DNA of 64,000 bases. It comes from Gemmata massiliana (GTDB lineage Bacteria > Planctomycetota > Planctomycetia > Gemmatales > Gemmataceae). Shown here piece by piece: positions 22,291 to 40,355 of this stretch. The notes under the pieces were generated by a model. It was given only the letters and a program-made list of their open reading frames with translations, was not told where the DNA came from and made no database searches. A program made the translations under genes and the position numbers. Each line of letters starts with the position of its first letter. Positions within the stretch are counted from its first letter, which is position 1. The stretch spans positions 3,518,843 through 3,582,842 of the forward strand of contig NZ_LR593886.1 of assembly GCF_901538265.1 (NCBI RefSeq), in the 5' to 3' direction.

Positions 22291-23592
22291 ATGCCTTCAC
22301 TTCACGGTCCGAGTTCCGCACTCACGCTCTCGCGCCGCGACTGGTTGCGGGGCGCGGTGGGCGTCGTTGGTGGCTCCATGTCGGGGTGGCTGGCGCCGTT
22401 CGCGGCCCGCGCCGCAGCGAACCCCGCACGCAAGAAGTCCGTCATCGTGCTGTGGATGAACGGTGGGCCAGCGACCATCGATATGTGGGATCTGAAGACC
22501 GGTCACAAGAACGGCGGGCCGTTCAAGGAGATCGAAGCGGCGCCTGGGGTGAAGATCAGTGAGCACCTGCCGAAGCTCGCGAAACTGGGCAAGGAACTCG
22601 CGGTTGTGCGGTCGGTTACGAGCAAGGAGGGGGACCACGGTCGAGCCACGTTCTTCGCACGCACCGGATACAACCCCGTCGGCGCGATTCAGTTTCCCGC
22701 CCTTGGATCTGTAGTAGCGCACGAACTCCCACGCGAAGGAAACGACCTCCCCGGATTCGTGAGCATCGCGCCGCGCCGGTTCGCGGGCGAGATCGGCGGC
22801 GGGTTCCTCGGGCCGAAGTTCGCGCCGCTCGTTGTGGGCGAGGGCGCGGTCGGCCCGGACGGGCTGAAGGTACCGAACCTCGAACGGCTCGCGGGCGTGA
22901 CCGACGCCGCGGCAACTGATCGACTGAAACTCCTCGAAGGGCTGGAAGAGAAGTACGGCGAGGGGCGCGGAGGGGCGGTCGTTGAGAACATTCAGGCGTC
23001 CACCGCGAGTGCGGTGCGCCTCATGCGCCCGGAAGCCGCGGCCGCGTTCAAACTCGACGAAGAAAAAGACAAGACGCGCGAAACCTACGGCCGCAACCTA
23101 TTCGGCCAGGGCTGTTTGCTCGCGCGGCGCCTGGTCGAGCGCGGGGTCGCGTGCGTCGAGGTCACGCTCGACGGGTGGGACACGCACACCAACAACTTCG
23201 AGCAAGTGAAGGGGCTGTCGGGCACTCTGGACGCCGCGTTCGGAACGCTGATCGCCGACCTGAAGGACCGCGGGTTACTCGATAGCACGATCGTCGTGTG
23301 CATGGGCGAGTTCGGGCGCACGCCGAAGATCAACGGCGGGAACGGTCGCGACCACTGGCCCGCATCATGGGCCGCGGTGATGGCTGGGGGCGGGATTAAG
23401 GGTGGGCAAGTGATCGGTAAGACGAACGCGGACGGCACGGCCGTCGAGGGGAATGAGGTCAAAGTGCCGGACCTGATCGCGACCGTGTGCAAAGCAACCG
23501 GGCTCGATCCGACCAAGCAGAACATGTCGAACGTCGGGCGCCCGATCCGGCTCGCCGACCCGTCCGCCAAGCCGATCGAGGGACTGCTGTGA
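22291..23592 (+). CDS. DUF1501 protein, Tat-exported
   Basis: A twin-arginine signal (LSRRDWLRGAVGVVGGSMSG) leads into VIVLWMNGGPATIDMWDLK, SKEGDHGRATFF, and the C-terminal block VVCMGEFGRTPKINGGNGRDHWP, all typical of DUF1501, a relative of the alkaline-phosphatase/sulfatase fold. It is exported folded, probably with bound metal. It follows the DUF1549/DUF1553 gene by 51 bases and overlaps the next gene by four bases (GTGA), so the three are one operon. A second set of the same three genes lies at 37159-42084. Confidence 0.9.
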   Translation: MPSLHGPSSALTLSRRDWLRGAVGVVGGSMSGWLAPFAARAAANPARKKSVIVLWMNGGPATIDMWDLKTGHKNGGPFKEIEAAPGVKISEHLPKLAKLGKELAVVRSVTSKEGDHGRATFFARTGYNPVGAIQFPALGSVVAHELPREGNDLPGFVSIAPRRFAGEIGGGFLGPKFAPLVVGEGAVGPDGLKVPNLERLAGVTDAAATDRLKLLEGLEEKYGEGRGGAVVENIQASTASAVRLMRPEAAAAFKLDEEKDKTRETYGRNLFGQGCLLARRLVERGVACVEVTLDGWDTHTNNFEQVKGLSGTLDAAFGTLIADLKDRGLLDSTIVVCMGEFGRTPKINGGNGRDHWPASWAAVMAGGGIKGGQVIGKTNADGTAVEGNEVKVPDLIATVCKATGLDPTKQNMSNVGRPIRLADPSAKPIEGLL

Positions 23593-25208
23593 GAACTACG
23601 CTGATTGCAGGGTGCGTTCTCGTGGTCACGTGCGGGTTCGCGCCCTTTGTGATGGGTGCGGACCCCGCGCCGAAATCGCCCGCCCGCTCGGAGTCGCTGG
23701 AACTCGTCGTCGTGAGCGAAGCCCGGCTCACGCGGATCGAACTGCGCATTGATTTGGACGGGCGCTCCGCTCCCGCCATCTGGAACGAAACGTTCGACAA
23801 ACTCTTCGCGTACTACGACCGCAACGGCGACGGCGCGCTCGACGAGAAAGAGGCCGCGCAACTCCCGTCGCCGTTCGCGCTCCGGCAACTCCTTTGGGGG
23901 CAGTCTACACCGTACTCCGGGCGCCCGGCGGTGCTCAAGGAACTCGACACGGACGGTGACAACCGGGTGTCAAAAGCCGAACTCGTTGGCTATTACCAGC
24001 GCGGCGGGATCGGGCACCCGCTCGTCGGCGTGGGTCGGCCCCAATCGACGGCCGCTCTGACAGCCGCGCTGCTCAAGGGGATCGACACGGACAACAACGG
24101 CACCGTCAGCGAGGCCGAGTGGAAGGCGGCAGCCGACGCGCTGCGCAAGCTCGACCGCAACGACGACGAGCTGATCGGCCCCGGCGAACTTGTGCCGAAG
24201 ATCGGGTACCCGGGTACCCTCGGGGCGATTCTTCTGGCACCGCCGACCGCGAGCGAAAAGCCGGTTTCCGAACTCGACGGGCTACCGGTCATCGTTCTGC
24301 CGGCGGACTTGGCGGACACGCACTGGGCGAGCGTCGTAGTGGGCCGACGCGACCGCGACAAGGACGGCAAACTCGACTCGAAAGAAGCGGGACTGCCGGT
24401 CGACGTGTTCGCCACACTGGACGCCAAACGTAGCAGGAAACTTACCCCCGCGGAACTCGCGGCGTGGCGCAAGGAGGAGCCGACCGCGCGCCACACGATC
24501 CGGCTCGGTAAACTGGAACAGGGGCGGCCCGCGGTAGAGCGGACCGGCGCGTCGTTCGAGATGGGGCTGTTGCGAATCGACGTGCGCCCCGATCCGGGAA
24601 AGATGCCGGAACTGGTCGCGGTTACCCGCAAGCGGTACCTCGATCGCTTTACCGACGCGGATGCCAACGCCGACGGATTCGTTGAAGAGAGCGAGATCGC
24701 GAAGCGGAACCAGTCGGAATTGCGGCAACTCCTGCCTGCGGCCGACCGCGACGGGGACGGCAAATTGAGCCGGGCGGAACTCGTTGCGTGGCTCGATTTG
24801 CAGGACCAGATCACGGCGGGTCACGCGCTCCTCACGGTTCTCGATCACGGCGCGGGGCTGTTCGAGCTACTCGACGTCGACCACGACGGCTCGCTATCGG
24901 TTCCCGAATTGCGAGGCGCATGGGACCGCGTGAAGGGGGCCGGTTGCATCGCCTCGGATGGTCGATTCGATGTCGGAAAGCTCCCGCGCCAGCTCATTTT
25001 GACCGTGAGCCGCGGGCACCCGGTCAACCCGCTGGGATCGACCCGGCGCGATGGCCCGGCATGGTTCAAGGCGATGGACCGCAACGGCGACGGCTTCGTG
25101 TCGCGCCGCGAGTTCACCGGAACGGCCGAACTGTTCGAGAAGCTCGATCTGGACAAGGACGGGTTACTCAGCCCCGAAGAGGCTAAGCGAGCCGAGATGA
25201 AGAAATGA
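23589..25208 (+). CDS. EF-hand repeat protein, exported
   Basis: The GTG at 23589 overlaps the DUF1501 stop (GTGA) and starts a signal peptide, so translational coupling is likely. The 539-residue product carries about nine or ten EF-hand loops, among them DRNGDGALDEKE, DTDGDNRVSKAE, DTDNNGTVSEAE, DRDKDGKLDSKE, DRDGDGKLSRAE, DVDHDGSLSVPE and DRNGDGFVSRRE. They occur in pairs separated by beta-rich segments. It should be a calcium-binding periplasmic partner of the two upstream proteins. The same position in the second cassette is held by a 627-residue EF-hand protein with a shared ending (LDKDGLLSPEEA against IDADHDDLISLAEAEA). Confidence 0.87.
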   Translation: MRTTLIAGCVLVVTCGFAPFVMGADPAPKSPARSESLELVVVSEARLTRIELRIDLDGRSAPAIWNETFDKLFAYYDRNGDGALDEKEAAQLPSPFALRQLLWGQSTPYSGRPAVLKELDTDGDNRVSKAELVGYYQRGGIGHPLVGVGRPQSTAALTAALLKGIDTDNNGTVSEAEWKAAADALRKLDRNDDELIGPGELVPKIGYPGTLGAILLAPPTASEKPVSELDGLPVIVLPADLADTHWASVVVGRRDRDKDGKLDSKEAGLPVDVFATLDAKRSRKLTPAELAAWRKEEPTARHTIRLGKLEQGRPAVERTGASFEMGLLRIDVRPDPGKMPELVAVTRKRYLDRFTDADANADGFVEESEIAKRNQSELRQLLPAADRDGDGKLSRAELVAWLDLQDQITAGHALLTVLDHGAGLFELLDVDHDGSLSVPELRGAWDRVKGAGCIASDGRFDVGKLPRQLILTVSRGHPVNPLGSTRRDGPAWFKAMDRNGDGFVSRREFTGTAELFEKLDLDKDGLLSPEEAKRAEMKK

Positions 25209-27163: not shown

Positions 27164-27355
27164 CGTGCCCGAGGGGAGCGGTTTCGGTCTGTGGCTCACG
27201 ACGCAACAGCGGTGTCGTGAGCAGAGTATTTCCGCTGATGATCTTGGTAGTACGGTAAGCGTATCTCCGATTTTTGTGCGTGCGGCGATACGGGCGCGTT
27301 TAAAGCCCGGGCGCCTCACTGCATTCTTCCGAACCTGCGTGTCCGGAGATTCACT

Positions 27356-30300
27356 GTGCTTCGTACTGCTGCCGCGTTCCTGCTGGTCGCACTGCCGTCG
27401 TTGGCGACGGCCCAATCGCTTCAAACGGTCGCGGAGAAGAGCGACTACAAATCGACTTCTCGGGGCGCGGACGTCGTCCAGTTTTGTGAGGCCATCGCCC
27501 GGCGCGGGCCGGTCGCGCGCCTCGACTACTTCGGCACGTCCCACGAGGGGCGGAAGTTGCCGTTGCTCGTGATCTCGAAAGACCCCGTTGCCACGCCCGA
27601 AGACGCGAAGAAAAGCGGTAAACTCGTGGTTCTGGCGTTCGCCAATATCCACGCCGGTGAAGTTGACGGCAAGGAAACTCTGCTCGCGTTCGCACGCGAC
27701 CTGACCGACAAGAAGGATCACCCGCTACTCAAGGATCTCGTTATTCTGCTCGTGCCGAATCTGAACGCAGACGGCAACGAGAAGATCGATCCGAAGAACC
27801 GCCCCGGTGACAACGGCCCTCCGAACGGTGCCGGGACGCGGGCCAACGCCCAAGGACTCGACCTCAACCGCGACTTCGTGAAGCTGGAATCGCCGGAAAT
27901 TCGTGCCCTGGTGAAGCTGATTGACGTCTGGAACCCGGCGATGGTGATCGACTGCCACACGACCAACGGCAGCAAGCACCGGTACACGCTCACCTACGAC
28001 GGTCCGCGGTACCCGGCGACCGATACCGATGCCGCGACCTGGGTTCGCGCCACTCTGTTCCCCGCGGTCACGAAACACGTCAAGGACGCGACTGGGTTCG
28101 ATCTCGCGCCCTACGGCAATTTCAACAGGGATCGCACCAAGTGGGAGACGTACCCCGCGACTCCGCGGTACAGCATCCAGTATTTCGCGTTGTGCGGGCG
28201 CGTCGGGATTCTGAGCGAATCGTACAGTTACGCCACCTTCAAGGACCGCATCGACGGTACGAAGGCGTTCGTGACTGCGTGTTTCACTGTTGCTGCGGAA
28301 AAGCGCCAGGAACTGGTGAAACTCGCGCAGCCCATCAAGAGCACGCGGATTGCTTTGCGGACCAAGACCGAGATGTTCCCGGAGACCACGGACATCCTGG
28401 GTTTCGAGGAGATCGAGAAGGACGGGAAGCGCGTTGCCACGGATAAACCGAAGACCTACCCCCTTCACTTCGTCGGGCGAGTAACGCCGACCGAGTTCAC
28501 GGAACAGCCGTTCTCGTACCTGATTCCTGCAACTGAAACTGTGGTAATCGAAACGCTTCAACGGCATGGGATCAAGGTCGAGGAGCTGCGCGAAGACATC
28601 GATCTCGACACGGAATCGCTCCTCGTTTCTCGCGTGGAGACGCAACCGAGCGGAAGCCCGAACCGGCGCTTCGTGGTCGAGGTTGGCGGGGAGTGGAAGA
28701 AAACGAAACGCCGGGTACCGGCCGGAACGGTGGTGGTGAAGACGGGACAGTCGCTCGGTGTACTCGCGAGTTACCTGCTCGAACCACGAAGCGAGGACGG
28801 ATTTACGACGTGGGCCTTTTTCGGCGACAAACTGGCTGCCGGGGCGGACTTCACCGTTCAGCGCCTCGCGAAACCGTACCCGATGGCACTTGGTAGCGTG
28901 CGCGCGTTGCCCGAAACACGTCGAGCGGATCAGCCGGTCACAGAAGCGTTACTGATGGGCACCGGGGGAACGTTCACGTTCGGGTTCGCGGGTACACCGC
29001 TCACGACGGGCGCCTGGGTGGATGCCGAGCACTTCCTGCAAGTCAAAGAAGGCAAGCTCCTGAAGGTCGAAGCACGAACGGGACGAGCGGAGCCGTTTGC
29101 CGATCCCGCGCTCATCAAGAAGTCGCTCGCGGCGATCAAGGATCTGGACACCAAAATCGTCGAGAGCACAGCGAAGAGTACGTCGTTCCGAACCAACCCC
29201 GACCGAACCGCGTTCCTGTTCGACATCGGTCCGGACATCGGCATCGTGTATTTCGACGGGCGCCCCGGCGCTCGCCTCACCAAGAGCAGTGGGGCCAAGG
29301 AACATGTCAGCTTCGCACCCAACGGGAAGACGGTCGCGTTCGTTCGTGGGAACAACTTGTTTGTCGTGGATGTGGAGAAGCCGGAGGAGAAGCAACTGAC
29401 CACCGACGGCGGGGGAGACGTCTTCAACGCGAAGGGTGATTGGGTGTACGAAGAGGAGATTTTCAATCGCGACGGGAAAGCGTACTGGTGGTCGCCGGAC
29501 GGGGCACAGCTTGCGTTCCTGCGCTTCGACGATGCGCCCGTGCGCAAATTCAATCTCGTTGATCTCCAACCAGTTCGCGGGAACCTGGAGAGCTACGCCT
29601 ACCCGAAACCGGGCGACCCGAATCCGCTCGTGAAGATCGGCATCGTGAGTGTGAGCGGCGGGAACCCCGTGTTCGTGGACATGGGCACGTACAAGCCGGA
29701 AGACACCGTGATTTCGCGCGTGGGGTGGGTGGCCGAATCGAAAACGGTGTTCGCGTTCGTGCAGAACCGGACCCAGACGTGGCTCGACTTCGTGACGTGG
29801 ACTGCGCCCGACGCGAAGCCCAAAACGCTGTTCCGCGAGACGACGATGGCTTGGGTGGATGATCCCGGCGAACCGCGGTTCCTGCCGGACGGTTCCTTCC
29901 TGTTTCTCAGCGAGCGCACCGGATGGAAGCACCTCTACCACTACTCTGCCGGGGGGAAGTTGATCACCCCGATCACGAAGGGCGATTGGGAGGTGCGCGA
30001 CGTGCTTCGCATCGACGGGAAGGAAAAGACGGTGTATTTCACCGCGGGCCTCACCAGTCCGACCGGAACGGACTTTTGCCGCGTGCAATTTGGTGGAGAT
30101 ACCGAACTACTCAGCGAAAAGGGCCGGACGCATCGCGTTTCGCTTGCGCCGAGTGGCGGGTTGTTCGTGGACCGGTTCGGCGACGCGATGACGCCGACGC
30201 GCTCGAACGTGTGCGAGGTGGGGAAGGGGGCCGTGCGCAAGCTCGACACGAACCCGGTGCGCGAGCGCGAAGAGTTCCGGTTTGGGAAGTACGAGCGCGT

Positions 30301-31042
30301 GAAGATCGAACTTAAGGACAGGTTCGTACTTGAAGGTGCGATTACGTACCCGCCGAACTTCGACCGGACCAAGAAATATCCCGTGTGGCTGTTCACTTAC
30401 GCCGGTCCGCACAGCCCAACTCTGCGCGACGAGTGGGGTGGCGGGCGCATCATGGAACAGTCGCTCGCGACCAGCGGCGTGATCTGTTTTCGGGTGGACC
30501 CGCGGAGCGCGAGCGGGAAGGGGGCGCAGTCCGCGTGGACGTGTTACAAGCAACTCGGTGTTCAGGAACTTAAGGATCTGGAAGAAGCGGTCGCGTGGCT
30601 GGCGAAGAACCCGTACATTGATGCGACGCGCGTGGGCATCAGCGGGCACAGTTACGGCGGGTTCATGGCCGCATTCGCGCTGACGCACTCCAAGACTTTC
30701 AGCGCGGGGATCGCGTCCGGTCCTGTTACGGACTGGGCGCTCTACGACACGATCTACACCGAGCGCTATATGCTCACGCCGAAGGAAAACCCGGACGGGT
30801 ACGCGAAATCGAGTTGCGTGGCCGCGGCGAAGGAGCTGAACGGTAAACTGCTCATCGTTCACGGCATGATGGACGACAACGTCCACATGCAGAACAGTGT
30901 GCAACTCGCCGACGCGCTTCAGAAGACCGGCAAGGACTTTGAGATGATGCTCTACCCCCGAGCGCGACACGGTATCGGGGGCGGGCACTACTTGAAACTG
31001 CAACTCGACTTCATCCGCCGCACGATGGGCGCGAACGAGTAA
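27356..31042 (+). CDS. M14 carboxypeptidase fused to DPP-IV-type S9B peptidase
   Basis: The GTG start follows GGAG and begins a signal peptide ending LATAQS. Residues about 30-330 are a zinc carboxypeptidase of the M14 type: zinc ligands H99 and E102 in NIHAGEVDGKE, R172 in LDLNRDF, H201 in IDCHTTNG and the catalytic glutamate at 288 in LSESYSY. Residues about 600-940 match the DPP-IV beta-propeller, with D695-WVYEEE-701 carrying the Glu pair that binds a substrate's free N-terminus. The S9 hydrolase domain closes the protein with S1099 in SGHSYGGF, D1173 in MMDDNVH and H1205 in RARHGIGG. All catalytic residues of both enzymes are present in one 1228-residue chain with no frameshift, so this is a genuine fusion of two peptidases, probably periplasmic. 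Confidence 0.9.
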   Translation: MLRTAAAFLLVALPSLATAQSLQTVAEKSDYKSTSRGADVVQFCEAIARRGPVARLDYFGTSHEGRKLPLLVISKDPVATPEDAKKSGKLVVLAFANIHAGEVDGKETLLAFARDLTDKKDHPLLKDLVILLVPNLNADGNEKIDPKNRPGDNGPPNGAGTRANAQGLDLNRDFVKLESPEIRALVKLIDVWNPAMVIDCHTTNGSKHRYTLTYDGPRYPATDTDAATWVRATLFPAVTKHVKDATGFDLAPYGNFNRDRTKWETYPATPRYSIQYFALCGRVGILSESYSYATFKDRIDGTKAFVTACFTVAAEKRQELVKLAQPIKSTRIALRTKTEMFPETTDILGFEEIEKDGKRVATDKPKTYPLHFVGRVTPTEFTEQPFSYLIPATETVVIETLQRHGIKVEELREDIDLDTESLLVSRVETQPSGSPNRRFVVEVGGEWKKTKRRVPAGTVVVKTGQSLGVLASYLLEPRSEDGFTTWAFFGDKLAAGADFTVQRLAKPYPMALGSVRALPETRRADQPVTEALLMGTGGTFTFGFAGTPLTTGAWVDAEHFLQVKEGKLLKVEARTGRAEPFADPALIKKSLAAIKDLDTKIVESTAKSTSFRTNPDRTAFLFDIGPDIGIVYFDGRPGARLTKSSGAKEHVSFAPNGKTVAFVRGNNLFVVDVEKPEEKQLTTDGGGDVFNAKGDWVYEEEIFNRDGKAYWWSPDGAQLAFLRFDDAPVRKFNLVDLQPVRGNLESYAYPKPGDPNPLVKIGIVSVSGGNPVFVDMGTYKPEDTVISRVGWVAESKTVFAFVQNRTQTWLDFVTWTAPDAKPKTLFRETTMAWVDDPGEPRFLPDGSFLFLSERTGWKHLYHYSAGGKLITPITKGDWEVRDVLRIDGKEKTVYFTAGLTSPTGTDFCRVQFGGDTELLSEKGRTHRVSLAPSGGLFVDRFGDAMTPTRSNVCEVGKGAVRKLDTNPVREREEFRFGKYERVKIELKDRFVLEGAITYPPNFDRTKKYPVWLFTYAGPHSPTLRDEWGGGRIMEQSLATSGVICFRVDPRSASGKGAQSAWTCYKQLGVQELKDLEEAVAWLAKNPYIDATRVGISGHSYGGFMAAFALTHSKTFSAGIASGPVTDWALYDTIYTERYMLTPKENPDGYAKSSCVAAAKELNGKLLIVHGMMDDNVHMQNSVQLADALQKTGKDFEMMLYPRARHGIGGGHYLKLQLDFIRRTMGANE

Positions 31043-37158: not shown

Positions 37159-39042
37159 TCATTTCTCCAACGGCTTCAAGTACGACTTGGCGTTCGGTTG
37201 TGGTGCGTTGGGCTTATCCTTTTCGCTGGGTTCTCGCATCTTCTTGTCGAAGGCTTCTGCCTCGGCCAAACTGATGAGATCGTCGTGATCGGCGTCGATC
37301 GCGTCGAACTCTTCCTTGGTGCCCACGTACTCTGTTCGAGACACGTCACCGTCGCCGTTGCGGTCCATCTTGCGGAACCACAGTGGCCCCTTTGTGGGGA
37401 TGACCACCTGGTTCTGGTTGACGTTGAACACCTGGGACGCCTGTTGAACATAAACCCGGTCGAAGGTACGCGCGAGCCGCAGCGCGACCGAGGGCTGAAT
37501 GATGTTCTTGGTGAGCACTTCGGCCCCCGGTTCTTCCAGCACAACGAGTCGCGTCCAGGCCGTGCGCAGCTCGCGCACGCTCAGGCGCCCGTCGCGGTTC
37601 TCGTCGAGCAGTTGGAACAGTGTGGGCGTTTGTATCGTCGGCGTCAGGCTCAGGCTGAGGTTGCGGAAGCTGTCCTGAAGGTCGAAGTACGCATCGAACT
37701 CTTCTTTGGTCATCTTCCCGTCACCGTTGCGGTCGGCGGCGTCGAAGAGAACGCGGACGAACTGGAACTGAACCGCGTTCGGGCCGGTCAGATCCTTGTC
37801 TTCAACATACTTTTTTGTGCCCGCGGCTTGCGTGAAGAGGTAGGCGTACTGCTGTTTCAGCGTGCCCTGTGAATACTGGGCGACGGGTGCGAAGGCCCAG
37901 AAGTCGATCGGCTGTTTGCCGACGTGGAGCACGATGCGCCCGTTTTCCACTTGCTTCATGACGAATCCGTGAGCCGCTGCCTCCTTTTCGTTGACCAGCT
38001 TCGCAACGCAATCGACGGCCCGCGGTGCCAGCGAGAGGGTGATGGCGAGGTCCGGTTCGCCGGTCCGCCACACGTCCAGTTCTTCACCGTCGAGGGAGCC
38101 GTTCCCGTCCTTGTCCAGCGTCCGGAACGTCAGATCGTCGAAGCCGACTTCGGCCTGTGTCAACTCAAAGTCGCCGTTCTTGTCGTAGCGCTTGATGCCC
38201 TGCTGTGTGATTGCCCCCGGACCCCGCCCGGCACGGTACACGACGACCTTTTGCGACCTCGCGCCGGTCGGGTCCCCGCCGTTGGGTGGTTGCGCGACTT
38301 GTCCCCGGAACCCGCCGAAGTTCGGGTCGAACAGTTCCGGCGAGAGTTCCTGCATGCTCAGGCACTCGTCCTCATCCGAGTCGCGGGTGGCGAGCAGTTT
38401 CTCGACGGCCTTGACCTCATCCTTCGTCAGTTTCCCGTCGCCGTTGGCGTCGAGCATTTTGAAGATGGCTTCGGTCACTGACACGTTCTGGGCGTTGTCC
38501 GGTTGAACCGGTTGCTCGCGCAGGAGTTGCTCGGCGGTGCGCTTGTAGTACGCGACGAACTCGTCGAACGAAACCTTGCCGTCTCCGTCTTTATCAAGGG
38601 TACCGAGAGTGGGGGCGCCGGTCGCGCCCGGCTGGTAGAAACCGTTCGCGAGTAACTGCACCATTCCCTGATCGGAGAAAACGAACCGCGTTTCCTTTTC
38701 GTTGAGGAACCCGTCGCCGTCGCGGTCGCAAAAATCGAACGCCTTCTGCAACCGGTCGAGCCACAGTTCGCTCATCAGCTTGCCCTCTTGGAAGATGGAC
38801 ACGCGGACGCGAACCGGGCGCTGGTTGGTGAACGTCAACACCTCGAAGGTATCGCTCACCGCCGTCGTTTTAGGCGCTTTTCCCCGTGGAGCGGGGGCGA
38901 GCGCCGGTGCGTCTGGCTTCAACGCACCAACTTGGGACGCCTTCCCCCGCGGGGCGGGGGCGAGGGTGGGGGCGTCCGGCACGGCGAGAACCGAGCCGGT
39001 TAGCCCCGCGACCGCCACAGCGGACAGGAGGAGGCGCTTCAC
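37159..39042 (-). CDS. EF-hand repeat protein, exported (second cassette)
   Basis: A signal peptide ending VLAVPDAP is followed by a duplicated segment, PDAPTLAPAPRGKA and PDAPALAPAPRGKA, and then a 627-residue body with EF-hand loops: DRDGDGFLNEKE, DKDGDGKVSFDE, DANGDGKLTKDE, DKDGNGSLDGEE, DRNGDGKMTKEE, DENRDGRLSVRE, DRNGDGDVSRTE and IDADHDDLISLAE. It is the last gene of a three-gene operon and overlaps the DUF1501 gene by four bases (ATGA). It corresponds in position and form to the 23589 product of the first cassette and should bind calcium outside the cytoplasm. Confidence 0.87.
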   Translation of the reverse strand: MKRLLLSAVAVAGLTGSVLAVPDAPTLAPAPRGKASQVGALKPDAPALAPAPRGKAPKTTAVSDTFEVLTFTNQRPVRVRVSIFQEGKLMSELWLDRLQKAFDFCDRDGDGFLNEKETRFVFSDQGMVQLLANGFYQPGATGAPTLGTLDKDGDGKVSFDEFVAYYKRTAEQLLREQPVQPDNAQNVSVTEAIFKMLDANGDGKLTKDEVKAVEKLLATRDSDEDECLSMQELSPELFDPNFGGFRGQVAQPPNGGDPTGARSQKVVVYRAGRGPGAITQQGIKRYDKNGDFELTQAEVGFDDLTFRTLDKDGNGSLDGEELDVWRTGEPDLAITLSLAPRAVDCVAKLVNEKEAAAHGFVMKQVENGRIVLHVGKQPIDFWAFAPVAQYSQGTLKQQYAYLFTQAAGTKKYVEDKDLTGPNAVQFQFVRVLFDAADRNGDGKMTKEEFDAYFDLQDSFRNLSLSLTPTIQTPTLFQLLDENRDGRLSVRELRTAWTRLVVLEEPGAEVLTKNIIQPSVALRLARTFDRVYVQQASQVFNVNQNQVVIPTKGPLWFRKMDRNGDGDVSRTEYVGTKEEFDAIDADHDDLISLAEAEAFDKKMREPSEKDKPNAPQPNAKSYLKPLEK

Positions 39043-40355
39043 GCGAGCACCTCCGTGACGGGCTTGGCGCCCTTGTCGACGATCCGGATCGGGCGCCCGA
39101 CGTTCGACATGTTCTGCTTCTCGAAGTCGATGCCCAGAGCCGAGCAGACCGTCGCGAGGAAGTCCACCGCGGGGGTGACGCGCTCTTCGACCGTGGTGCC
39201 GTCCTTACTCGTCTTGCCAACGGCCTGGCCGCCCTTGACGCCGCCGCCCGCGATGACCGTGCTCCAGGCGTTCGGGTAGTGGTCGCGGCCCTTGCCCTGA
39301 TTGATCTTCGGCGTGCGCCCGAACTCACCGGCCCACACGATGGTGGTGGTTTCGAGCAGCCCGCGGTCCTTGAGATCGTCCATCAGCGCGGCCCAGGCCG
39401 CATCGAGCGTGCCGGACAAGCCCTTCACGAGATCGAAATTCTGGCCGTGTGTGTCCCAGTTACCGAGCGTGACCTCGATGAACGGCACGCCTTTTTCGAC
39501 CAACCGACGGGCCAACAGGCACCCCTGGCCGAACAGGTTTCGACCGTACTTGTCGCGCGTCGCGTTCTTCTCTTGCGTCAGGTCGAACACCTTACCGCCT
39601 TCGGACTGCATAAGGCGGATGGCCCGGTCGTAGGCGGCGGCGTGGCTCTTGGCCATCGAACCGGGCCGCGTGGTGGCGAACTCTTCTTGCATGTCGCGGA
39701 GCATGTCGAGCCGGGCCGCGCTCGTGGGTTCATCAATGTTTTTCGGGCGGTCCAGGTCGGCGACCTTCAGGATTTGGTCGATGTTCCCGCCCTGACCGTT
39801 GTTGAACTGGCCGTCGCCGACGATGAGCGGCGCGTGAACCGGCCCGAGGAAGCCGGGACCGAAGGCGTCCATCGCGAAGAACCGCTGCGGCGCGATGCTG
39901 ATGAAATTCGGCAGTTCGGACTTTGGGTCGCCGAGTTCCTTCGAGACCAGCGAGCCGATGCTGGGGTACTGGATGCCCGCGAAGCCGGGCAATTGGCCCG
40001 TGCGGAGCAAGTACGTACCGCGGGCGTGGTCGCCTTCTTTCGTGGACATCCCGCGGAGGACGGCGAGGTTCTTCCCGTGCTTCGCGAGCTTCGGCAGGTG
40101 CTCGCTGATCTTCAGTGCCGGTGCCGCTTCGATCTCCTTGTACGGCCCGCCGTTCTCGTGACCCGGCTTCAAGTCCCAGAGGTCGATCGTGCTCGGCCCG
40201 CCGTTCATCCACAACAGAATGCACGAGCGCTTCGGCTTGGTGTTCTTTTCCTCAGCTGCCCGCGCGAGTTGGCCCATCCACCCGGACATGGATACTGCGG
40301 TGCTCACCGCACCGACGCGGAGCAGATGACGACGGTCGAGGTTCATCTGGGACAT
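39039..40355 (-). CDS. DUF1501 protein, exported (second cassette)
   Basis: GAGGAG precedes the ATG. The N-terminus has LDRRHLLRVGAVSTAVSMSGW, a probable Tat signal, then CILLWMNGGPSTIDLWDLKPG, TKEGDHARGTYLLR and IVWAGEFGRTPKINQGKGRDHYP, the DUF1501 hallmarks. It is highly similar to the 22291 product, including the ending KQNMSNVGRPIRIVDKGAKP. Middle gene of the operon with the DUF1549/DUF1553 protein upstream (85 bases) and the EF-hand protein downstream (four-base overlap). Confidence 0.9.
   Translation of the reverse strand: MSQMNLDRRHLLRVGAVSTAVSMSGWMGQLARAAEEKNTKPKRSCILLWMNGGPSTIDLWDLKPGHENGGPYKEIEAAPALKISEHLPKLAKHGKNLAVLRGMSTKEGDHARGTYLLRTGQLPGFAGIQYPSIGSLVSKELGDPKSELPNFISIAPQRFFAMDAFGPGFLGPVHAPLIVGDGQFNNGQGGNIDQILKVADLDRPKNIDEPTSAARLDMLRDMQEEFATTRPGSMAKSHAAAYDRAIRLMQSEGGKVFDLTQEKNATRDKYGRNLFGQGCLLARRLVEKGVPFIEVTLGNWDTHGQNFDLVKGLSGTLDAAWAALMDDLKDRGLLETTTIVWAGEFGRTPKINQGKGRDHYPNAWSTVIAGGGVKGGQAVGKTSKDGTTVEERVTPAVDFLATVCSALGIDFEKQNMSNVGRPIRIVDKGAKPVTEVLA

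What the first reader, a model, noticed from the sequence alone, without database searches (positions are those of the whole stretch)
27356..31042. One polypeptide joining a complete M14 carboxypeptidase and a complete DPP-IV peptidase
The 1228-residue frame has all M14 residues (H99, E102, R172, H201, E288), the DPP-IV Glu pair motif (D695-WVYEEE) and the S9 triad (S1099, D1173, H1205). The two enzymes would attack a peptide from opposite ends: one takes C-terminal residues, the other N-terminal dipeptides. I know each family separately but not a standard fusion of the two. The middle segment (about 340-590) is not assigned.
Basis: partly seen in the sequence, partly recalled or inferred. Interest (0 to 1): 0.65.

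Follow-up and report, generated by a model that had tools for sequence, protein, structure and literature searches.

The report
Two-ended peptidase: fused M14 and DPP4
Planctomycete bacteria make one protein that carries two complete-looking protein-trimming enzymes, one expected to cut from each end of a peptide; the pairing is real and conserved, relatives exist with only one of the two halves, and its activity has not been tested.

Summary
Window 27356-31042 is one 1228-aa frame with an M14 module and a DPP4-type S9B module; every quoted catalytic residue is where stated. It is no sequencing artefact: 13 of 19 genomes of the genus carry it full length in one open frame, 34 of 95 of the family (one split over two contigs and one frame-broken included), at least 12 of 392 sampled across the phylum, and 58 of the 80 best loci of a wide genome scan are fused. 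Key residues of both active sites are invariant in 49 of 49 aligned fusions, and both halves are under purifying selection. The 'unassigned' middle belongs mostly to the M14 module: a long beta-arm (about 331-383) and an alpha/beta subdomain (about 385-510) also present in free-standing M14 relatives; 511-605 leads into the DPP4 propeller. Relatives lack the M14 half (7 family genomes, 4 tree positions, match always starting at residue 378-390) or the DPP4 half (5 family genomes inside the fused group); the remaining half keeps its catalytic residues where examined. I read it as an exported two-headed exopeptidase with independent sites; obligate channelling is unlikely. No description was found in the searched papers. 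New variant of a known kind.

The parts
27356..31042 (+). whole gene, 1228 aa plus stop, M14-DPP4 fusion
   Evidence: single open frame; GGAG at 27345-27348 before the GTG start
27356..27415 (+). probable Sec signal peptide, residues 1-20 (by eye, no predictor run)
   Evidence: sequence: hydrophobic N-terminus ending ...ATAQ; inference
27416..28330 (+). M14 metallocarboxypeptidase domain, residues 21 to about 325
   Evidence: Pfam PF00246 41-177; residue invariance; model
27650..27661 (+). Zn ligands H99 and E102 (HxxE)
   Evidence: 49 of 49 invariant
27839..27871 (+). R162 and N171-R172, counterparts of the substrate-carboxylate binding residues of carboxypeptidase A (R127, N144-R145; numbering recalled)
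   Evidence: aligned to the R...DLNR stretch of solved carboxypeptidases D, N and M; 49 of 49
27956..27958 (+). third Zn ligand H201
   Evidence: 49 of 49
28217..28219 (+). catalytic Glu E288
   Evidence: 49 of 49
28346..28504 (+). long beta-hairpin arm, residues about 331-383
   Evidence: AlphaFold models
28508..28885 (+). alpha/beta subdomain, weakly ferredoxin-like, residues about 385-510; kept in free-standing M14 relatives and, shortened or diverged, in M14-less DPP4 relatives
   Evidence: VIA Z at most 3.6, over model residues 57-184 at the widest
28886..28990 (+). inter-module linker, residues about 511-545, lowest confidence about 532-541
   Evidence: pLDDT dip; module boundary
28991..30250 (+). 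DPP4-type beta-propeller, residues about 546-965
   Evidence: Pfam DPPIV_N 639-947; Foldseek to DPP4 structures
29453..29458 (+). DPP4 double-Glu E700-E701 (recognises the free N-terminus in DPP4; recalled)
   Evidence: 49 of 49 invariant
30251..31039 (+). S9 alpha/beta-hydrolase domain, residues 966-1228
   Evidence: Pfam PF00326
30650..30652 (+). catalytic S1099 (GHSYGG)
   Evidence: 49 of 49
30872..30874 (+). catalytic D1173
   Evidence: 49 of 49
30968..30970 (+). catalytic H1205
   Evidence: 49 of 49

Best explanation
It is an exported bifunctional exopeptidase. An N-terminal zinc M14 carboxypeptidase removes residues from the C-terminus of peptides, and a C-terminal DPP4-type serine peptidase removes X-Pro (or X-Ala) dipeptides from the N-terminus. 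The beta-arm and the alpha/beta subdomain belong to the M14 module and tether it to the DPP4 propeller. The two sites most likely work side by side on the same pool of peptides, speeding breakdown of scavenged, proline-rich peptides outside the cytoplasm, not by obligate hand-over of one substrate. Shown: fusion, intact residues, conservation, relatives with either half alone. Inferred: export, zinc, both activities, specificity, substrate, direction of loss.
For: Domains over Pfam cut-offs. Fusion in 13 of 19 genus genomes, 34 of 95 family genomes, at least 12 of 392 phylum genomes, 58 of 80 scan loci. Both active sites invariant in 49 of 49. dN/dS against the nearest relative L139: M14 0.041, S9 0.021. 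AlphaFold pLDDT 92.1, pTM 0.85 on residues 22-1221. The DPP4 half aligns with solved bacterial DPP4 chains at TM-score 0.83-0.88 by target and keeps the YD..YTER motif of the DPP4s printed. Halves occur alone with intact residues: 6 of 6 M14-less DPP4s and 6 of 6 M14-only proteins examined.
Against: No activity, zinc content or localisation was tested; the signal peptide was judged by eye. The C-terminal half of M14 is not covered by the Pfam match. The residue before the catalytic Ser is His in 37 of 49 fusions (Trp in the five solved DPP4 sequences, three proteins, printed), so S9 specificity may differ. Neither half is strictly kept: 7 family genomes have an M14-less gene and 5 an M14-only gene inside the fused group, so any benefit of joining is not essential.
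Confidence: 0.75

Rival explanations
1. A coupled machine: the M14 site sits at an opening of the DPP4 cavity so that one peptide is trimmed at both ends without leaving, or the M14 module gates or extends the DPP4 entrance.
For: One rigid-looking model with pTM 0.85. The 7 of 7 M14-less family genes keep part of the C-terminal subdomain of the M14 module next to the propeller; their match starts at residue 378-390 in four tree positions, as if the DPP4 half had come to depend on it.
Against: Either half is found without the other inside the fused group, with its catalytic residues kept, which obligate coupling would not allow. Active-site distance and facing could not be measured.
Confidence: 0.12
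2. The M14 half acts on cell-wall peptides or another amide rather than on ordinary peptide C-termini, and the DPP4 half only handles the released fragments.
For: Bacterial M14 enzymes include murein peptide amidases (recalled); a very weak NCBIfam match to MpaA (15.5 bits, cut-off 157) exists.
Against: The counterparts of R127 and N144-R145 are invariant; the nearest solved sequences are carboxypeptidases D, N, M and B.
Confidence: 0.1
3. The S9 half is a prolyl tripeptidyl peptidase or a specialised maturation enzyme (such as a lasso-peptide isopeptidase) and not a DPP4-like dipeptidase.
For: P. gingivalis prolyl tripeptidyl aminopeptidase is also a close fold match (TM 0.89-0.90 by target); the lasso isopeptidase model matches at 68.9 bits.
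Against: The lasso model's cut-off is 400 bits; the best sequence and Foldseek E-value matches are DPP4s; D1131 (DPP4-like; Glu in the tripeptidyl enzyme by recall) is 49 of 49. No lasso-peptide cluster search was done beyond the neighbours scanned.
Confidence: 0.1
4. Artefact: a frameshift or assembly error joined two neighbouring genes.
For: In L183 the M14 frame is directly followed by the DPP4 part in other frames, and G027 is frame-broken.
Against: The same join without stops is found in many independent genomes; the window genome is one 10.1 Mb contig.
Confidence: 0.01

Closest known systems
Dipeptidyl peptidase IV, MEROPS S9B (Stenotrophomonas 2ecf, Pseudoxanthomonas 5yp1, btDPP4 7y4f)
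   Same: Residues about 546-1228: propeller, hydrolase, triad, double Glu, YD..YTER; Foldseek 28-30% identity to these chains
   Different: Extra 500-residue N-terminal M14 module; His instead of Trp before the catalytic Ser
M14 metallocarboxypeptidases (carboxypeptidases D, N, M)
   Same: HxxE...R...NR stretch aligned; H and E by motif and invariance
   Different: Distant (phmmer best E 8.5e-6); followed by a beta-arm and alpha/beta subdomain without a Pfam match; joined to a DPP4
Free-standing M14 proteins of Planctomycetota, about 510-650 aa (e.g. L126, L127, L128, L130)
   Same: Whole residues 21-510 module, 37-66% identical by part in these four
   Different: No DPP4 half

Membership tests
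M14 (zinc carboxypeptidase) | Pfam PF00246 over the gathering score | tested here: met
   75.2 bits against 21.6
M14 (zinc carboxypeptidase) | HxxE + His zinc ligands and catalytic Glu | tested here: met
   H99, E102, H201, E288 in 49 of 49; second half by motif, invariance and model only
M14 (zinc carboxypeptidase) | Substrate-carboxylate Arg/Asn-Arg | tested here: met
   R162, N171, R172 in 49 of 49; alignment
M14 (zinc carboxypeptidase) | Zn content and carboxypeptidase activity | not testable with these tools
   needs purified protein
S9B dipeptidyl peptidase IV | DPPIV_N propeller plus Peptidase_S9 domain | tested here: met
   268 and 165 bits
S9B dipeptidyl peptidase IV | Ser-Asp-His triad and propeller double Glu | tested here: met
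   S1099, D1173, H1205, E700, E701 in 49 of 49
S9B dipeptidyl peptidase IV | DPP4 overall fold | tested here: met
   Foldseek E 1.4e-63, TM 0.86 by target to 2ecf
S9B dipeptidyl peptidase IV | Release of X-Pro dipeptides | not testable with these tools
   needs assay
Dpp5 equivalog NF053518 | NCBIfam cut-off 900 bits | tested here: not met
   72.5 bits
Lasso peptide isopeptidase NF033523 | NCBIfam cut-off 400 bits | tested here: not met
   68.9 bits
Prolyl tripeptidyl peptidase | Glu in place of the DPP4 Asp beside the S1 Tyr (recalled) | tested here: inconclusive
   D1131 in 49 of 49; the reference residue is recalled, no alignment with 2d5l was printed
Ferredoxin-like fold (middle subdomain) | Clear structural match | tested here: inconclusive
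   Foldseek best E 0.51; VIA Z at most 3.6, among others to PII, CutA and ribosomal chains

The most novel reading that the evidence does not exclude
A two-ended exopeptidase in which the M14 module, through its beta-arm and alpha/beta subdomain, feeds or gates the DPP4 cavity, so that one bound peptide is shortened from both ends: a processive peptide-degrading device assembled once or twice in Planctomycetota.
Probability: 0.12. Interest if true: 0.65.

Novelty: new variant of a known kind. Interest (0 to 1): 0.42.

Why it matters
Two exopeptidases of opposite polarity and unrelated chemistry (zinc and serine) in one chain, conserved across much of a phylum, are a natural test of what joining enzymes gains: genomes with the fusion, with only the M14 half and with only the DPP4 half exist side by side in one family. 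It also draws attention to an M14-associated subdomain for which no Pfam match was found.

Tried and rejected
N-terminal extensions of 200-800 aa before M14 (L108, L111, L113, L115-L118, L132, L134, L216) or before DPP4 (L225, L228, L230, L247) looked like further fusion partners. Pfam on all 14 found no partner domain outside the peptidase domains; I take the extensions as over-long first-start reading frames in GC-rich DNA and dropped the idea. L123 is different, see Noticed in passing.

Two origins of the fusion: the DPP4-half tree puts 6 fusions (L110, L205, L211, L212, L217, L218) apart from the other 72, but an AU test does not reject one clade of all fusions and M14-less rows (p 0.45; 8 long-branch free-standing rows of 121 dropped), so one or two origins stay open. 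Minimum label changes: 7 on the DPP4 tree, 6 without L246; on the M14 tree 14, or 12 without L147 and L183, which are frame-broken fusions labelled 'alone' by my script. These are quick LG+G4 trees; one search warns of long branches meeting, and and 48 of odd letter make-up in some rows. Direction of change (loss rather than gain) is parsimony, not shown.

Fission into two co-existing genes: G024 has an M14-only and an M14-less gene, but its M14-only protein (L131) falls in a distant branch, so I take it as an old paralogue, not the missing half. For the five M14-only Gemmataceae genomes the only DPP4-half matches at E 1e-80 or better are 32-36% identical paralogues, so the DPP4 half seems gone, not moved (G088, G022, G028 and G042 are assembled in 60-600 contigs, so absence is not certain there).

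Spread outside Planctomycetota: fusions sit in records titled Verrucomicrobiales (L181), Verrucomicrobiaceae (L182), Opitutaceae (L176) and Cyanobacteria (L186); in 288 genomes of the phylum of L181 only the centre itself matched at E 1e-120, so this is rare transfer or mis-binning and was not resolved. L186 is a near-twin of a Phycisphaerales row in the tree.

No coordinates are given out, so active-site distances were not measured. Promoter-like sites: 0 found, 0.7 expected; terminator-like 4 found, 5.6 expected.

Papers: searches gave no description of the fusion (one search failed, a term too short). PMC1560137 (passages), PMC2605481 (passages, abstract and outline; its five families do not include S9) and PMC8841776 (passages) do not describe it in what I saw; all others were seen in search listings only. 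Most subscription journals and all bioRxiv preprints are outside the library.
Full report
CHECK. Pfam finds Peptidase_M14 at 41-177 (E 9e-21), DPPIV_N at 639-947 (1.2e-79) and Peptidase_S9 at 1035-1225 (1.8e-48). The gene has a plausible ribosome-binding site (GGAG), a hydrophobic N-terminus like a signal peptide (by eye), and lies between an opposite-strand FG-GAP/ASPIC protein and an opposite-strand short-chain dehydrogenase. The longest stop-free run in 60 Markov-random windows was 670 codons against 1263 here. The window lies in a 10.1 Mb single-contig genome; the nearest named relative is Gemmata sp. IIL30 (L139, 96% over the M14 module).

NOT AN ARTEFACT. In the genus, 13 of 19 genomes have the full-length fusion in one frame without stops; G010 has it cut over two contigs, G007 and G014 have it without M14, and G009, G013 and G015 have none. 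In the family, 47 of 95 genomes match the M14-plus-middle query at E 1e-5; mapping the reading frames gives 32 fusions in one frame plus G010 (two contigs) and G027 (frame-broken), 34 in all; 6 genomes with a free-standing M14 module (G088, G022, G028, G042, G071, G024), 7 with an M14-less gene (G007, G014, G037, G036, G073, G072, G024; G024 has both) and one contig-end fragment (G020, not fetched). In a phylum sample of 392 genomes, 102 have the M14 module at E 1e-10 and at least 12 have the fusion (window included; the matches with open frames of about 970 aa or more, and some shorter ones, were fetched and mapped, so fusions cut by contig ends would be missed). They are titled Gemmata, Gemmataceae, Fimbriiglobus, Tautonia, Phycisphaerae, Pirellulaceae and others, with three records titled as Verrucomicrobiota and one Cyanobacteria. 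The other 22 are M14-only (18, one of them, L183, followed by the DPP4 part in other frames), cut by a contig end before it can be told (2) or M14 with an over-long frame (2).

BOTH SITES KEPT. In 49 aligned fusions H99, E102, R162, N171, R172, H201, Y253, E288 and E700, E701, Y1015, S1099, Y1130, D1131, Y1134, R1137, D1173, D1174, N1175, H1205 are invariant. E699 varies (E in 11 of 49) and the residue before the catalytic serine is H in 37, W in 5, Y in 4 and F in 3. Pairwise dN/dS against L139: M14 0.041, middle 0.092, linker part 0.028, propeller 0.096, S9 0.021; against three further relatives all modules lie between 0.066 and 0.243, with the middle highest in two and the short linker part in the third.

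THE MIDDLE. Free-standing M14 relatives of about 510-650 aa match up to about residue 505-526 of the window protein, so residues up to about 510 belong to the M14 module. AlphaFold of residues 22-1221 with 49 fusions gives pLDDT 92.1 and pTM 0.85, with a dip at about 532-541. Residues 328-548 alone give pLDDT 91.3, pTM 0.80: two strands of about 25 residues (331-355, 358-383) and then an alpha/beta part. Foldseek finds no PDB match better than E 0.51; a second look by VIA gives at most Z 3.6, among others to PII, CutA and ribosomal chains over about residues 385-509, a weak hint of a ferredoxin-like fold and no proof of one. No Pfam match covers it in the proteins scanned.

HISTORY. On the DPP4-half tree (121 rows) 72 fusions, the 7 M14-less rows and one free-standing row form one group (SH-aLRT 100); the M14-less rows sit in four places inside it, so M14 was lost at least four times if the fusion is ancestral there. 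Their match to the window protein starts at residue 378-390 in 7 of 7, the start of the alpha/beta subdomain. A signal-peptide-like start lies just before it in L119, L120, L121 and L125; L122 and L124 have a longer unmatched N-terminus; in L123 (G036, cut at both contig ends) the subdomain follows, in the same open frame, another complete-looking S9 domain with its own propeller, as if a second DPP4-type enzyme stood in the place of M14. On the M14 tree (120 rows) fused and free-standing rows are interleaved (14 changes, 12 without two frame-broken genes); five Gemmataceae M14-only genomes lie inside the fused group and have only 32-36% identical DPP4 paralogues at E 1e-80. In both kinds of half-gene the catalytic residues are kept: 6 of 6 M14-less genes (the seventh, L123, was not examined) and 6 of 6 M14-only genes. 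Six fusions form a second group among free-standing DPP4s, but a single origin is not rejected (p-AU 0.45).

MECHANISM. Established knowledge of the families (recalled): M14 enzymes of this residue set remove C-terminal residues; DPP4s remove N-terminal X-Pro/X-Ala dipeptides inside a cavity between propeller and hydrolase, held by the double Glu. The window protein keeps both sets. The simplest working model is an exported protein that trims peptides from both ends. Because either half is found without the other inside the fused group, with the rest intact, I think the sites work independently, joined for equal dose and co-location. The retained alpha/beta subdomain in M14-less genes suggests that the DPP4 half has come to need this piece, structurally or for partner contact; this is the most interesting loose end.

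COMPARISON AND NOVELTY. The DPP4 half is a member of S9B by every feature that could be tested, and the M14 half a distant member of M14. It does not reach the NCBIfam cut-offs of Dpp5 or of lasso-peptide isopeptidase. The genome has six DPPIV_N matches and two M14 matches, and only this locus has both. No paper describing the combination was found in nine completed searches of the open library, which lacks most subscription journals. I therefore rate it a new variant of a known kind: a conserved domain combination of known enzymes for which I found no description.

Noticed in passing
L123 1-3678 (G036): One open frame, cut at both contig ends, holds a propeller-plus-S9 (DPPIV_N twice, S9 at 398-587), then the M14-associated subdomain, then a second DPP4 propeller: a possible double DPP4 in a close relative of M14-DPP4 fusions.
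   Followed up: partly
L079 789-3878, L080 389-3748, L119 5542-8481, L120 2657-5812, L133 280-3855: In some relatives a second S9-family peptidase gene (about 980-1190 aa; Pfam S9 confirmed in L079, L080 and L119) lies directly upstream of the fusion or M14-less gene, in L119 overlapping it by 17 bases; the window lacks it.
   Followed up: partly
window 30647-30649 (residue H1098): His replaces the Trp that precedes the catalytic Ser in the solved DPP4s printed; His in 37 of 49 fusions, so specificity may be shifted.
   Followed up: partly
window 23487-25208 and 37159-39042: Two proteins rich in EF-hand repeats, each next to a DUF1501 gene (22291-23592 and 39039-40355).
   Followed up: no
L181, L182, L176: Fusions in contigs titled as Verrucomicrobiota, otherwise not seen in 288 genomes of the phylum of L181: rare transfer or mis-binned contigs.
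   Followed up: partly
L183 911-4975; L085 4616-8283: Frame-broken copies in which the M14 and DPP4 parts, or parts of S9, lie in successive frames; pseudogene or sequencing error.
   Followed up: no
window 28508-28885: Conserved alpha/beta subdomain (AYLIPA...HGI.VEELRED...YLLEP.S.DGL..W) without a Pfam match, found with M14 across the phylum and retained, shortened or diverged, in M14-less DPP4 genes.
   Followed up: partly
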